From the IMG/VR virus record IMGVR_UViG_3300032893_000083, positions 1 to 47,786 of that record: a DNA stretch of 47,786 nucleotides; one strand, given 5' to 3'. Of this stretch, positions 21,601 to 39,611 are shown piece by piece. A model generated the notes under the pieces. It was not told the DNA's origin, searched no databases, and saw only the letters and a program-made list of their open reading frames with translations. This stretch comes from a virus. The number at the start of each line of letters is the position of its first letter. The first letter of the stretch is position 1. The position numbers and the translations under genes are program-made.

Positions 21601-22002
21601 CTACCCCGCCACGCAGAAGCCGCATTTCGGGTCGGCCCTATGCGGATGGCGGACACAACCTGCCAGCTTAGGCCTGGAGCCGACGGCTGGAGTCGAACCA
21701 GCAACCTGCCCGTTACGAGTGGGATGCTCTACCGTTGGAGCTACATCGGCGTGAGAAGGATCAACGGGCGTTGCCCAGGCCTGGATGCAGTCCCGAACTG
21801 CTCGCGTAGCAGTCGCGACCTGTGTTTTCACAGCCGCCCGCTCATCCTTCTCGGCCCATCGCTTCCTCGCCATCGCCTGCGCTACCGGGTCCGGATAGCA
21901 TCGGCACGTCTTACAGTGCTTCTCAGGCATATGCGCATGGTACGCTTCTGCGCATATGCGGTCAAGCGCTTGTGCGCTGCTGCCTAACTGCTTCAAAGCC
22001 AT
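21601..22002 (-). CDS. Uncertain open frame reading through the tRNA gene
   Basis: 133 residues from the ATG at 22002 (AGGGG upstream), or 139 from a GTG that directly follows the stop of the upstream gene. It has Cys clusters (KHCKTCRC, and CGFC near the end). The 3' part crosses the tRNA-Thr, so residues like VAGSTPAVGS only reflect the T arm. Either a small zinc-binding protein ending in an odd extension, or no gene at all. Confidence 0.3.
   Translation of the reverse strand: MALKQLGSSAQALDRICAEAYHAHMPEKHCKTCRCYPDPVAQAMARKRWAEKDERAAVKTQVATATRAVRDCIQAWATPVDPSHADVAPTVEHPTRNGQVAGSTPAVGSRPKLAGCVRHPHRADPKCGFCVAG
21675..21750 (-). tRNA. tRNA-Thr (anticodon CGU) with encoded CCA
   Basis: Minus-strand cloverleaf of 72 bases plus U73 and an encoded CCA. 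Acceptor stem GCCGATG/CGTCGGC (7 pairs, one G-U), D arm GCTC/GAGC with an 8-base loop, anticodon loop CTCGTAA, variable loop AGGTT, T arm GCTGG/CCAGC with loop TTCGACT. The anticodon stem is imperfect (only three C-G pairs; mismatches at 27-43 and 31-39). Thr identity follows from the CGU anticodon. An open frame reads through the gene on the same strand. Confidence 0.82.
21927..21959. repeat. 33-bp inverted repeat, operator-like
   Basis: GCATATGCGCA (21927-21937), 11-base spacer, TGCGCATATGC (21949-21959): perfect 11-bp arms, each itself rich in palindromic ATGCGCAT. A 10-bp palindrome CAAGCGCTTG follows at 21963-21972. No U-run, so not a terminator. It could bind a dimeric regulator at the boundary between the late operon and the mixed-strand region. 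Confidence 0.55.
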
Positions 22003-24970: not shown

Positions 24971-25450
24971 ATGGCTGAATTTATCATTAAAAGCTACTTG
25001 GACTTGGACGCGGAATTGTACCGCTGTGAAGCTGCGAGTCAAAAAGCAGCGGTTGAACAAGCAGTCAATCGCGGCGCGGACCTGTACGGCGCGGACCTGT
25101 ACGGCGCGGACCTGCGCGGCGCGAACTTGTGCGGCGCGAACCTGTGCGACGCGAACTTGCGCGACGCGAACCTGTACGGCGCGAACCTGTACGGCGCGAA
25201 CCTATACGGCGCGAAGCTGTGCGGCGCGAACCTGTGCGGCGCGAAAGGCATCCATACCATAGAGGGCGGCAAAGACTCGCGTAATTACGAGTTTCGCGCT
25301 ATCGAACTGCCCGACGGCTGGCGTATCAGTGCCGGTTGCCGATTTTTCACGCTCGACAAAAGCAAAAAGCACTGGCGCAATAACCCCGAATGCGCGGCCA
25401 TCGTCGCCAAGCTGATTGCTGAAACCGAAAAGCTGGATGCGGAGGGCTGA
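24971..25450 (+). CDS. Pentapeptide-repeat protein
   Basis: 159 residues. Residues about 36-90 are eleven consecutive pentapeptides of the A-(D/N/K)-L-x-x type ([15 protein letters not shown]), predicted to fold as a right-handed beta-helix. The C-terminal 65 residues contain [20 protein letters not shown], a small domain often attached to such repeats in phages. Known members (Qnr, MfpA) mimic DNA and protect or inhibit gyrase; most phage members have no known role. The repeats are nearly identical 15-bp units in DNA, suggesting recent expansion. Confidence 0.85.
25074..25245 (+). repeat. Tandem 15-bp repeats inside the pentapeptide gene
   Basis: About eleven units close to GGCGCGAACCTGTAC with changes mainly at two codons. 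Copy number could vary between isolates by slippage. Confidence 0.75.
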
Positions 25451-31759: not shown

Positions 31760-31989
31760 CGCTTATCCTCAATCGAAAAGCCTTGGCACTCTTGAAAGGG
31801 GTGTTTTGGCCTCCCTCCCCTAGCACTTGGGGTCTGGCACCCTTCTTGGCACTCTTTAAGTAAGTCCTTATTATTATTATATTTTTTATACATATCTAAG
31901 GGTGCCATCAAGGGTGCCAAAGTGTAAGGGTGCCACCTAAGGGTGCCAACGCCATTATGTAGGAATATGGCATCCTTGGCTCCCTTCAA
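31756..31989 (-). CDS. Uncertain open frame across the iteron region
   Basis: 77 residues, repeated L-A-P/TLRW segments reflect DNA iterons, and it overlaps the 3' end of the primase-helicase gene by 35 bases. It may be the accidental translation of the origin; the 4-base overlap with the zinc-finger gene keeps it open. Confidence 0.25.
   Translation of the reverse strand: MKGAKDAIFLHNGVGTLRWHPYTLAPLMAPLDMYKKYNNNKDLLKECQEGCQTPSARGGRPKHPFQECQGFSIEDKR
31784..31948. repeat. Iteron cluster with AT-rich core, putative replication origin
   Basis: AAGGGTGCCA occurs four times as a direct repeat (31898, 31910, 31926, 31939). Its complement TGGCACCCTT (31835) and the one-base variant TGGCACTCTT (31784, 31847) flank the other side. 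Between them lies an A/T-rich stretch (31857-31897, with TTATTATTATTATATTTTTT). Direct iterons beside an AT-rich segment, next to the primase-helicase gene, match the layout of theta-type phage origins such as that of lambda. Confidence 0.6.
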
Positions 31990-34881: not shown

Positions 34882-34890
34882 AAAGGTGCG

Positions 34891-34961
34891 GTGAGCGTGG
34901 GCTAACGGTAAGTCATTCGGCCTGTACCCGAAGGACGCCGGTTCGACTCCGGTCGCTCACC
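34891..34961 (+). tRNA. tRNA-like gene, anticodon UGU (Thr) with unusual C33
   Basis: Cloverleaf of 70 bases: acceptor GTGAGCG/CGCTCAC (7 perfect pairs), D arm GGCT/AGTC, anticodon stem TTCGG/CCGAA (5 perfect pairs) with loop CCTGTAC, a 4-base variable loop, T arm GCCGG/CCGGT with loop TTCGACT. Base 33 is C where nearly all tRNAs have U. No CCA is encoded (CTTG follows). A G at 34890 could extend the acceptor by one pair. Confidence 0.68.
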
Positions 34962-35055
34962 TTGTGCACGCCCAATAAATTCACGTGCTTTTCTTTTATA
35001 GCAGGGCGCCGAAATAATGACAACCGTCAAGAGAAAACCGCAGTCTCGTCCATTG

Positions 35056-36198: not shown

Positions 36199-36987
36199 TC
36201 AAAAATCAATATCCGGCTGTTCTGGCGGTTGCGTCACTCCTGCCGCTGTCCCGCTCTTGGCAAATTCTTCAATCTCCCGTATCAACAACTTGCCAGACCC
36301 CATCGACAGCTTTTTAGCCGCGCCGCCTAGCGTGGTTTCTGCTAGGGCTTCCACACAGGTAGGGTCGGCGTCCATCTCTTTCAAGCGGCCCCGGAACCAC
36401 TTCGGGCCTTCCTCATCGCCCATTGCCGCCCGTAGCTTTTGCACCAGCGTAGAGGCTTCCTTGGCCGTGAGCCGCCCTATCTGACTGGCGGGTGTCTGGC
36501 TGATGCCGCTATGCTTGGCGCGGCCCTTGTCGGTATCGTGCGGCGCGTCGGCTTCGGGATCATCGCCTACCCGCATCATTAGGGGCTGGCTCAAGGCGTA
36601 CTTGAGGGCATTAGTCATGGCCTTCGCACTGGCCTTGTCGCCGCTGTCCCGACCCTCTCCGATGCTTGCCACACTCAATCGTTCCCCGCTGTCGCCGTCG
36701 CAAAAGACGTAATCCAGCGTCACGATGATACGGGCATCCGTGCGGACTTCACCCCGGCTGTTTGTGGCTTCAATCGTACTGGCAGCGAACGCAAGATTCT
36801 CGCGCGATAGAATCACGTTGACTGCCGCCAGCCGGTCGCCAATCTCCCCCGCAATATCTTCGGCGCGCAGGTAGTCGTAGTTCTGGTGGGTATTGCGCCC
36901 TTTCTTTTCGATGTTCTTCAATTCGCGCCGTATGCTCGCGAGCTTCTTGATCAGCCCGACCGGCACGGCGTTATCTTTGTCTGCCAT
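36199..36987 (-). CDS. erf: ERF-family single-strand annealing protein
   Basis: 262 residues. NYDYLRAEDI (36-45) and SIGEGRDSGDKASAKAMTNA, then LKYAL (108-132) are hallmark stretches of the ERF (essential recombination function) superfamily. After about 150 residues a less conserved linker and a helical C-terminal part follow, ending in an acidic PDIDF. ERF anneals complementary single strands in recombination and end repair. Its start overlaps the stop of the upstream gene (TAATG). Confidence 0.88.
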   Translation of the reverse strand: MADKDNAVPVGLIKKLASIRRELKNIEKKGRNTHQNYDYLRAEDIAGEIGDRLAAVNVILSRENLAFAASTIEATNSRGEVRTDARIIVTLDYVFCDGDSGERLSVASIGEGRDSGDKASAKAMTNALKYALSQPLMMRVGDDPEADAPHDTDKGRAKHSGISQTPASQIGRLTAKEASTLVQKLRAAMGDEEGPKWFRGRLKEMDADPTCVEALAETTLGGAAKKLSMGSGKLLIREIEEFAKSGTAAGVTQPPEQPDIDF

Positions 36988-37411: not shown

Positions 37412-37576
37412 ATGGACAGACACACAACCTATCAGGTGAAGGTGCGGATGCCCGTCGAACTACATAAACGGCTCCGTGTATGGGGCGCGACACAGGAACC
37501 ACCTTTGAGCGTTCCAAAGGCCGCGCTCAAGTTGCTCGACAAAAACACGCCGCAAAACGGCCAGAGGGAGAAATAA
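37412..37576 (+). CDS. Arc-like ribbon-helix-helix regulator
   Basis: 54 residues. YQVKVRMPVELHKRLRVWGA, then SVPKAALKLL matches the Arc/Mnt ribbon-helix-helix pattern (strand with alternating residues, M-P-x-E-L, two helices). Such proteins are dimeric DNA-binding repressors. No ribosome site is seen, and the promoter is very near, suggesting leaderless translation. Its stop overlaps the ATG of the RAMP-like gene (TAATG), so it is probably the regulator of the array locus, acting on the inverted half-sites upstream. Confidence 0.72.
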   Translation: MDRHTTYQVKVRMPVELHKRLRVWGATQEPPLSVPKAALKLLDKNTPQNGQREK

Positions 37577-38409
37577 TGAAATCGAAAACGAAAACTGTAA
37601 CAAACGAGACGATTCAAGTTCTGCGGCTGGAAATGAGCCAACTGCATTTCTGCATTCTCGGTCAAAGCCCGCTCATCTACAATGCGGTCAGCGAGAAAGC
37701 GAAACACGAACTGCTCTATCCGGGTGGCCGCAAGAGCGCCGTCGAACGCGCGGGCAATCTCAAGCATCAACCGCTCGATGAATACCGCAATTCCACCTAC
37801 CAGTTTGCCGATGATGAACAGCCGAGCAAGCCGGTGACACGCCTATTCGTACCCGGCGCAATGTTCAAGGCGGCGATGGCGACCGCCGCACTCGACATCG
37901 AAGGGATCAAGAAGACGGAACTGGAACGGCTCTTGTGGGTCGAACCCCGTAAGATTCCGGTATTCGGGGTTCCGCAACTCTTGATGAGCATCACCCGTTC
38001 CAGCGACATCAATCGGACACCCGATGTTCGCACCCGCGCTATCCTTCCCGAATGGGCGTGTTTCGTCACGGTCAATTTCGTCCGTCCCAAGCTCAATGAG
38101 ACTTGCGTGGGCAATGTGCTGGCGAGCGCCGGAATGATTTGCGGCATTGGCGACTGGCGGCAACAGAAGGGGTCGGGCGATTATGGCCGCTTTGAAATCG
38201 TCGCCAAGGATAACCCCGCTTTCGTCCGGCTGACAAAAACTACCGGACGGGAAATTCAAGATCGCGCATTAGCTGCTCCATCAGCATTCGATTTAGAAAC
38301 AGAACGATTGCTGAATTGGTTTCAAGATGAAACGAAAAAGCGGGGGCAACATCTAAACGGCGCTACCCCAAAAGTGGACTCGGCAGGCCAAGTTACGGCT
38401 ATTGATTAA
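37576..38409 (+). CDS. RAMP/Cas7-like protein next to non-coding arrays
   Basis: 277 residues from the ATG at 37576 (TAATG with the RHH gene; AGAGGGAG upstream). After an initial strand (VLRLEMSQLHFCILGQSPLI) come RLFVPGAMFKAAMATAA (89-105), which resembles the hydrophobic-Pro-Gly-x-x-hydrophobic-Lys-x-A motif of RAMP proteins, DVRTRAILPEWACFVTVNFV (150-169) and a late glycine-rich segment, GIGDWRQQKGSGDYGRFEI (190-208), like the RAMP G-rich loop G-x-G...G-x-G/Y-G-x-F. RAMP folds (Cas7, Cas5, Csm3) bind RNA along the guide. No nuclease residues are obvious. The gene has no cas neighbours; it is followed by the period-5 array. I read it as an RNA-binding RAMP-like protein, with the function unproven. 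Confidence 0.6.
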   Translation: MKSKTKTVTNETIQVLRLEMSQLHFCILGQSPLIYNAVSEKAKHELLYPGGRKSAVERAGNLKHQPLDEYRNSTYQFADDEQPSKPVTRLFVPGAMFKAAMATAALDIEGIKKTELERLLWVEPRKIPVFGVPQLLMSITRSSDINRTPDVRTRAILPEWACFVTVNFVRPKLNETCVGNVLASAGMICGIGDWRQQKGSGDYGRFEIVAKDNPAFVRLTKTTGREIQDRALAAPSAFDLETERLLNWFQDETKKRGQHLNGATPKVDSAGQVTAID

Positions 38410-38424
38410 ATATACTTTAGCCGC

Positions 38425-38930
38425 AATGGAAAGATACGGTGCGATACGGTCGGTTGAGGTGTGTTCAGGTGAGATCGGATGAGGCCGCCTTGGTTGGGTC
38501 TGTTACGGTCCTCTCAGGTGGGTTGCGGTATGGAAAGGCCGCTTTGGACAGGACGCGCAAGGAGCGTTTAGGTGCGGATTGGTAGCGTTAGGCCGCTTTG
38601 GTTGGGTGTGAAAGATTCGGAATGGACTGCTCCGGTCTGGCCGCTCAGGATAGGACGAGTCAGGACAGGAAATGAAAGTTCTGGTAGGTCTGGCCGATAT
38701 GATCTGGAGCTTCGAGATAGGAACGGTCAGGAATGGCAGCGTATGATCGGTCGCGGTAACGCCGATATGGAGAGGCAGTGTGGGGTTTGTTCGGATGCGA
38801 TTCGGTGAGCAATGGTCGGGCTGCTGAGATGCGATTCGATGGCGTGCGGTCGAATCGGGTCGGGTAAGTTAACGCCGCTCAGGTATGGAAGATCAGGCAT
38901 GTAGCGGTCTGATTAGGTTCGGCAGGTGAT
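38425..38930 (+). repeat. Non-coding period-5 G array 1 (about 500 bp)
   Basis: No plausible gene lies between 38410 and 38947. In the first 170 bases a G recurs every fifth base: of 23 lattice positions from 38428 to 38538, 19 are G, and from 38547 to 38592 another 9 of 10, with many of these followed or preceded by a second G. The three bases between are variable. The rest keeps the same look with shifts of one or two bases. Some units recur (AGGCCGCCTTGGTTGGGT at 38482 and, with one change, at 38590), but there are no exact long repeats, spacers or palindromes. The plus strand is rich in G and poor in C. Confidence 0.8.
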
Positions 38931-38947
38931 AACAAAGGAGATCGAAA

Positions 38948-39424
38948 ATGGACAAGTTGATAATTGTAAAGGAACTGACAAGGATCGAGGATAGCGAAGG
39001 CCGCTTGACGCCCGATGCGGTAGTCAAGGCGGCGCAAAGCCCGAAAAGCCCGCTGCATCGGTTTTTCGAGTGGGACAATACAGAAGCGGCGCGGAAGTAC
39101 CGCATTGAACAGGCGCGCGAGCTAATCCGCGAAGTGCGAATCGAAATGACCGTCCACGAAAAGACGATCCAGACGGTCGCCTACGTCCGCGATCCTTCCG
39201 CGCCGCCAAACCGACAAGGTTATCGTAGCGTTGTGAAGTTGGCCGATGAACGGACCGAGGCGTGGACGGCAGTAGAAGCCGAATTTCAACGGGCGTTAGG
39301 GGCATTGCGGCGGGCGCGCGACATTGCCACGGCACTAGACTTTGCTGACGAAATCGACCGCCTGCTGACCGATTTGACTAATCTCAGCGGGACACTTGGC
39401 GAGAAAGTAAAACTCGCCGCTTAA
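38948..39424 (+). CDS. Conserved-looking phage protein between the two arrays
   Basis: 158 residues with AAAGGAGATCGAAA before the ATG. GRLTPDAVVKAAQSPKSPLH, then RFFEWDNTEAARKYRIEQAR is a pattern (L-T-P-x-A-V-V-x-A-A...S-P-L-H-x-x-F-E-W-D) that I have seen in phage proteins of unknown function. The middle is beta-type (MTVHEKTIQTVAYVRD), and the C-terminal part is helical (FQRALGALRRARDIATAL). It is flanked on both sides by the G-lattice DNA, so it may be a partner of the RAMP-like protein or the array RNA. No enzymatic residue is evident. Confidence 0.7.
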   Translation: MDKLIIVKELTRIEDSEGRLTPDAVVKAAQSPKSPLHRFFEWDNTEAARKYRIEQARELIREVRIEMTVHEKTIQTVAYVRDPSAPPNRQGYRSVVKLADERTEAWTAVEAEFQRALGALRRARDIATALDFADEIDRLLTDLTNLSGTLGEKVKLAA

Positions 39425-39440
39425 GATTGCCATTATGCAA

Positions 39441-39600
39441 TCTGGTCAGATTTGGGCCGTCAGATTAGGCAAGAATTGGAGCGGTCGGGCCGCTATGGAG
39501 TGGTATCGTGGCATAAGTTCTGGCGGGGCGTCATAAGGCCGCTGAGATGACGACAGGATGGGCGAGTTTTGGAATAGTGCGGAAAGGTAAGGACAGAAAG
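39441..39600 (+). repeat. Non-coding period-5 G array 2 (about 160 bp)
   Basis: Between two genes on the plus strand. G occupies 444, 449, 454 and 459 (added to 39000), then after a one-base shift 463, 468, 473, 478, 483, 488, 498, 503 and 508, that is 13 of 14 lattice points. The same C-poor, GG-rich style continues to the ribosome site of the next gene at 39599. Confidence 0.75.
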
Positions 39601-39611
39601 GAGAATTGACC

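What the first reader, a model, noticed from the sequence alone, without database searches (positions are those of the whole stretch)
38948..39600. Second array and a shared partner gene
After the 158-residue gene (38948-39424) the same lattice returns (39444-39508, 13 of 14 points G). The gene is therefore embedded in the array DNA and probably part of the same unit. Two arrays of different length around one gene suggest separate transcripts or an insertion of the gene into one array.
Basis: partly seen in the sequence, partly recalled or inferred. Interest (0 to 1): 0.83.

Follow-up and report, generated by a model that had tools for sequence, protein, structure and literature searches.

The report
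Phage VIPR guide arrays around vap
This phage gene sits between two arrays of RNA-guide DNA belonging to a VIPR system, a recently described CRISPR-like weapon that phages use against rival phages, and the gene is that system's regular accessory partner.

Summary
The lattice on both sides of the 158-residue gene is far beyond chance once one-base slips are allowed: array 1 scores 75 against shuffles of -10±3, and array 2 scores 24 against 1±2. The rigid "13 of 14" count is not reproduced (9 of 14).

The locus is a VIPR system (bioRxiv 2026, PMC13142463): a RAMP-like Vipr (37576-38409), guide arrays of NN-GG-T pentamers, and an accessory gene (Vap). The Vipr family profile matches the solved SUSP1 Vipr (36pp, E 3e-13), and its model matches Cas7/Csm3. 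Starting from the partner gene, 78 of 80 loci carry vipr (the other two have little upstream sequence) and 73 carry an array. This Vap is unrelated to SUSP1 vap1.

Guides are delimited by a one-base-short unit (GGC-A-GGC; here GGC-C-GCT). In relatives, whole guides match rivals' vipr genes under the published one-base-skip rule, with the skipped base at the codon wobble position and the guide's own vipr mismatched. No target is proven for the window's twelve guides; one (38767-38820) reads the tyrosine-recombinase motif DSGLRASE.

Arrays lie after, between, before or on both sides of the genes, so the two-array layout is ordinary variation.

The parts
37576..38409 (+). vipr: RAMP/Cas7-fold guide-RNA-binding protein, 277 aa (phrog_4652), with a C-terminal extension of about 60 aa
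   Evidence: PHROG E 9.7e-16; profile A4 matches solved SUSP1 Vipr 36pp_D at E 2.9e-13; model pLDDT 88 with Foldseek top hits Csm3/Cas7, E 3.5e-6, VIA Z 10.1
38415..38945 (+). Array 1: about nine tail-less guides of NN-G-(G/A)-(T/A) pentamers, separated by GGC-C-GC(T/A) junctions (G of GCCG at 38420, 38484, 38538, 38592, 38640, 38693, 38761, 38874; a variant junction near 38819)
   Evidence: Cyclic model 75.3 vs shuffles -9.6 sd 2.8; junction positions
38767..38820 (+). Guide in array 1 with NN = AT GA AG GG TT CG GC TC GA AT CG; read with one skipped base per pair it spells (M/I)(D/E)(S/R)G(L/F)RAS(E/D)(I/M)R, the box I motif of tyrosine recombinases
   Evidence: Sixteen-position match in an integrase reading frame of L182; the only one of 862 guides that reads this motif, shuffled expectation 0.15-0.23; suggestive only
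38948..39424 (+). vap: accessory protein of the VIPR system, 158 aa (phrog_15946); predicted winged-helix-like N-terminal half plus a C-terminal helical hairpin
   Evidence: PHROG E 1.5e-19; 78 of 80 loci with this gene carry vipr; model pLDDT 95, order H3-17 H22-28 H44-62 E64-69 E72-77, helices 102-129 and 133-157
39436..39605 (+). Array 2: about three guides, junctions at 39456, 39489 and 39538
   Evidence: Cyclic model 23.8 vs 1.3 sd 2.3; generic lattice scan 26.6

Best explanation
The locus 37576-39605 is a phage VIPR system. Vipr, a Cas7-like RAMP protein, is inferred to bind RNAs transcribed from the two arrays, contacting the fixed G-(G/A)-(T/A) triplets of each pentamer and leaving the two variable bases free. 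Each guide runs from one four-base junction unit to the next and holds about 9-12 NN pairs. It is inferred to recognise double-stranded DNA of competing phages or prophages, pairing two bases, skipping one, and so on, and to block expression there. The 158-aa gene is the system's accessory protein (Vap), probably a DNA-binding helper of the Vipr complex. Shown here: the lattice, the RAMP fold and homology to SUSP1 Vipr, the near-obligate association of the three parts, and the one-base-skip rule with wobble alignment in relatives of the same Vipr/Vap family. Inferred: RNA expression, Vipr binding, repression, and the role of Vap. The window's own targets are not established.
For: Lattice statistics. 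Vipr homology to 36pp SUSP1 Vipr and to the SUSP1 vipr gene; RAMP fold. Co-occurrence: 77 vipr+vap loci, array detected in 71, 99 arrays on the vipr strand vs 2 on the other; 78/80 from the vap side. Skip rule: of 862 distinct guides, 6 have a match run of 17 or more outside arrays with a one-base skip, against 0-1 for skips of 0, 2, 3 and 4 and a mean of 0.77 (max 3) for shuffled guides. Guides hitting vipr or vap at 16 or more: 7, against 0 for the other skips and a mean of 0.7 for shuffles. Printed examples: L076 guide to L035 vipr 19/20, L039 to L024 vipr antisense 19/20, L086 to many vipr genes 16/16 at EDMVRVGM, all in wobble phase. The guide's own vipr matches less well: 15/20, 16/20, 13/16. 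Published system: PMC13142463.
Against: No target was found for the window's guides: exact scans for four guides in viral contigs gave 0, 0, 5 and 7 mostly chance-level hits, and two genome-collection scans gave 0. The window motif is looser than the published GGY/NN (second G 0.61, third base T 0.64 or A 0.25). Array 2 includes one short guide of six pairs. The guides lack the 3' tail of SUSP1 vrRNAs. One guide (L014) matches its own vipr best (20/24), although with four mismatches.
Confidence: 0.9

Rival explanations
1. The arrays are binding sites for an RNA-binding ring or filament protein, like the TRAP attenuator, and only the fixed triplets matter; the NN bases are neutral filler.
For: Five-base period and about 10-11 triplets per unit resemble TRAP-bound RNA (own knowledge).
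Against: The NN bases carry information: in relatives whole guides match rivals' vipr genes in wobble phase under a one-base skip, far above shuffled guides. The protein is a RAMP, with Cas7/Csm3 as best fold matches.
Confidence: 0.03
2. The arrays are DNA iterons, for replication or partition, bound as double-stranded DNA.
For: Repeats next to a replication module (ERF recombinase, primase/helicase in the window) and a ribbon-helix-helix gene upstream.
Against: Strict strand bias with the vipr operon, 99 to 2; arrays move around the genes; the guide-to-target matches.
Confidence: 0.03
3. The system is VIPR but decayed in this phage: the looser motif and slips inside guides mean many guides no longer work.
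For: Weaker GG (0.61) and T (0.64) positions than in L002, L004 or L014; extra slips inside several guides; no targets found.
Against: Both genes are intact; the lattice is still about 30 standard deviations above shuffles; relatives of the same clade (L009, L010) show a similar looseness, so it looks like a clade trait.
Confidence: 0.12

Closest known systems
VIPR type II, Escherichia phage SUSP1 (NC_028808; PDB 36pp; PMC13142463)
   Same: RAMP-type Vipr homologous by profile; pentamer arrays with two variable bases; accessory gene beside vipr; one-base-skip targeting holds in this family's relatives
   Different: The accessory protein is unrelated to SUSP1 vap1 (hhalign probability 0.1); guides are head-to-tail with a four-base junction and no tail; Vipr has a C-terminal extension; the motif is looser
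Other VIPR types of PMC13142463 (staggered arrays; DNA-binding Vap in types VI and VII)
   Same: Continuous arrays and a predicted DNA-binding accessory protein fit the description in the text
   Different: The supplement with type definitions could not be read, so the type number is not assigned
Class 1 CRISPR-Cas (type III Csm3/Cas7 backbone)
   Same: RAMP fold of the guide-binding subunit
   Different: No CRISPR repeats and spacers, no multisubunit effector genes beside it; noncontiguous guide code
TRAP (MtrB) RNA-binding attenuator
   Same: RNA with a triplet every five bases
   Different: Different protein fold; the spacer bases carry target information here

Membership tests
VIPR system | Vipr protein: RAMP fold with glycine-rich loop, related to known Vipr | tested here: met
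   Profile hit to SUSP1 Vipr 36pp_D, E 2.9e-13; Csm3/Cas7 fold, Z 10.1, rmsd 3.6 over 152 residues; invariant G186, G190, G192, R195, G204
VIPR system | Array of pentamers with a fixed GG(Y) and two variable bases, next to vipr | tested here: met
   the third base is T or A here instead of a strict pyrimidine
VIPR system | Accessory (vap) gene in the locus | tested here: met
   P0001 family in 77 of 82 non-duplicate vipr loci and vipr in 78 of 80 vap loci
VIPR system | Noncontiguous target recognition with a one-base skip | tested here: inconclusive
   Met in relatives of the same family; no firm target for the window's own guides
VIPR system | Array transcribed and bound by Vipr | not testable with these tools
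   Needs small-RNA sequencing and pull-down
VIPR type II (SUSP1 clade) | vap1 accessory protein | tested here: not met
   hhalign of the Vap profile with SUSP1 gp38: probability 0.1; no hit in SUSP1
VIPR type II (SUSP1 clade) | Invariant structured 3' tail after each guide | tested here: not met
   Guides here follow each other with only a four-base junction unit
CRISPR-Cas class 1 | Identical direct repeats separated by spacers, with cas genes | tested here: not met
   No tandem repeat array called here; the flanking genes that were searched match no cas family
TRAP-RNA system | TRAP (MtrB) protein | tested here: not met
   No TRAP hit in Pfam for the seven proteins scanned; the Vipr model is a RAMP

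The most novel reading that the evidence does not exclude
The window represents a VIPR branch with its own accessory protein (winged-helix-like, phrog_15946), tail-less guides separated by a single four-base unit, and guides chosen to hit the most conserved coding motifs of rivals. Those motifs include rivals' own vipr genes (in relatives) and a tyrosine integrase (in this window), while the phage's own copy carries mismatches.
Probability: 0.5. Interest if true: 0.7.

Novelty: new member of a known kind. Interest (0 to 1): 0.6.

Why it matters
VIPR is a very recent proposal for the ancestor of CRISPR and for programmable phage-phage warfare. This locus adds a clear environmental phage example. 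It also shows, from sequence alone, that the one-base-skip code holds outside the SUSP1-type (vap1) clade, that guides aim at conserved motifs of rival VIPR genes with the skipped base at codon wobble positions, and how guides are delimited when there is no tail. It gives a function-linked name to two PHROG families listed as unknown (4652 and 15946), which makes many phage annotations testable.

Tried and rejected
Rigid 5-base lattice counts: rejected, because slips break them. Window-wide lattice hit at 25071-25245: a coding pentapeptide repeat. Targets for window guides: four nine- or eight-pair patterns in viral contigs, two patterns in the genome collection, three patterns with up to 3 mismatches in 50 related virus records (one hit with 3 mismatches, no better than the control), and one in the window itself. 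The 5 hits of guide 38539 and most of the 7 hits of guide 38762 look like chance; the integrase hit is suggestive only. Rfam, including hammerhead ribozymes, on the window stretch and 13 loci: nothing. Vap against the PDB by sequence and fold: nothing significant; VIA matches cover only the helical hairpin. The upstream ribbon-helix-helix gene is not conserved in the nearest relatives. No similar DNA in the plasmid collection.

Full report
CHECK. The gene is at 38948-39424 (158 aa) and lattice DNA lies on both sides. A rigid lattice does not give 13 of 14 G at 39444-39508; the best phases give 9 of 14. The lattice slips by one base at 39456 and 39489, and with slips allowed it is strong. A five-state cyclic model scores 75.3 on array 1 and 23.8 on array 2; 30 dinucleotide shuffles give -9.6 (sd 2.8) and 1.3 (sd 2.3). 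The learned pentamer is N-N-G(0.84)-G(0.61)-T(0.64), with A as the usual substitute at the last two positions.

WHAT IT IS. Upstream lies a 277-aa gene (37576-38409) in PHROG 4652; the partner gene is in PHROG 15946, both of unknown function. Both genes occur together in Gordonia phages and in Mycobacterium F1 phages, and Cyanophage Cy-LDV1 has the partner gene and a vipr found by profile. All six annotated phage records fetched with these genes have a GGCNN array in the locus. In Mycobacterium phage Gorge one 405-aa open frame carries both domains. A literature search found the VIPR preprint (PMC13142463), which describes a phage RAMP protein (Vipr), accessory genes (vap) and guide RNAs of alternating GGY/NN.

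EVIDENCE FOR VIPR MEMBERSHIP. The Vipr family profile hits the solved SUSP1 Vipr (36pp_D, E 2.9e-13) and finds the SUSP1 vipr gene. The predicted model (pLDDT 88) matches Csm3/Cas7 subunits (Foldseek E 3.5e-6; Z 10.1). Searching viral contigs with the Vipr alignment gave 421 relatives, of which 80 were kept. With near-identical copies removed, 77 loci carry both genes and 71 of these have a detectable array. Arrays are after vap only in 36, between only in 18, on both sides of vap in 8, and in other layouts in the rest. Ninety-nine arrays are on the vipr strand and 2 on the other. Searching from the partner gene instead, 78 of 80 loci carry vipr and 73 carry an array; in the two exceptions the gene starts 31 and 671 bases from the start of the fetched stretch.

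GUIDE ANATOMY. In relatives the array is cut into units by GGC-A-GGC, a pentamer one base short. In the window the same place reads GGC-C-GC(T/A). Units hold about 9-12 NN pairs, so array 1 holds about nine guides and array 2 about three. Unlike SUSP1, there is no tail between guides.

TARGETING RULE. I extracted 862 distinct guides and searched 1.1 Mb of fetched loci with skips of 0 to 4 bases, leaving out arrays. At a match run of 17 or more, one-base skip gives 6 guides, other skips 0 or 1, and 30 shuffles of NN order a mean of 0.77 (max 3). Guides hitting vipr or vap at 16 or more number 7 for skip one, 0 for other skips, and a mean of 0.7 for shuffles. The printed cases are wobble-aligned: EKKGDFGTF, LLDAGGM (antisense), GIGEW and EDMVRVGM of rival Vipr proteins. 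The carrier's own vipr has mismatches at the same site: 13/16 against 16/16, 15/20 against 19/20, 16/20 against 19/20, 17/28 against 23/28. One exception is the L014 guide, which fits its own vipr best with four mismatches. The DNA searched is enriched for vipr (8.6 percent), but the other skips and the shuffles were run on the same DNA.

TARGETS OF THE WINDOW'S GUIDES. None is established. The guide at 38767-38820 reads (M/I)(D/E)(S/R)G(L/F)RAS(E/D)(I/M)R in the wobble frame, the box I motif of tyrosine recombinases, and matches 16 of 16 central positions (19 of 22 in all) in an integrase frame of L182. Other hits of the same pattern are chance, and dataset-wide 0.15-0.23 such motifs are expected after shuffling, so this is suggestive only.

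THE PARTNER PROTEIN. It is not related to SUSP1 vap1. The model (pLDDT 95) has helix-helix-helix-strand-strand and then a long helical hairpin. I read this as a winged-helix DNA-binding domain with a dimerisation hairpin; no PDB match is significant, so this is inference. The preprint says some Vap proteins are predicted DNA binders and that vap1 enhances protection; the same helper role is the most likely one here.

LAYOUT. In the closest relatives with arrays behind the genes (L009, L010, L013, L014), vipr and vap are adjacent with the array after vap. The window therefore most simply gained array 1 between the genes; insertion of the gene into an array is not needed.

Noticed in passing
25071-25245: A 15-bp tandem repeat scores on the lattice scan but is the coding sequence of a pentapeptide-repeat protein (24971-25450); it is a decoy for period-5 searches.
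   Followed up: yes
37412-37576: A 54-aa ribbon-helix-helix-like gene whose stop codon overlaps the vipr start codon by one base (TAATG), so it may be translationally coupled; it is not conserved upstream of vipr in the nearest relatives.
   Followed up: partly
36199-36987: ERF-type single-strand annealing protein on the minus strand, divergent from the VIPR operon.
   Followed up: no
21675-21750 and 34890-34962: Two tRNA-Thr genes with different anticodons (CGT and TGT) on opposite strands.
   Followed up: no
31894-31948: A 13-bp tandem repeat (ATCTAAGGGTGCC, about four copies) just outside the primase/helicase gene; possible origin iterons.
   Followed up: no
L014:4372: A guide in the window's own subclade fits the vipr genes of that subclade (L014 20/24, L012 19/24, L009 19/24) on the antisense strand, always with mismatches; its true target may be an unsampled relative, or it may tune its own gene.
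   Followed up: partly
L031:4407-4796: One of only two arrays found on the strand opposite to vipr.
   Followed up: no
L032:3660-3740: A run of TGGTTCTGGTTC direct repeats near the start of a very long array, perhaps a site of array expansion.
   Followed up: no
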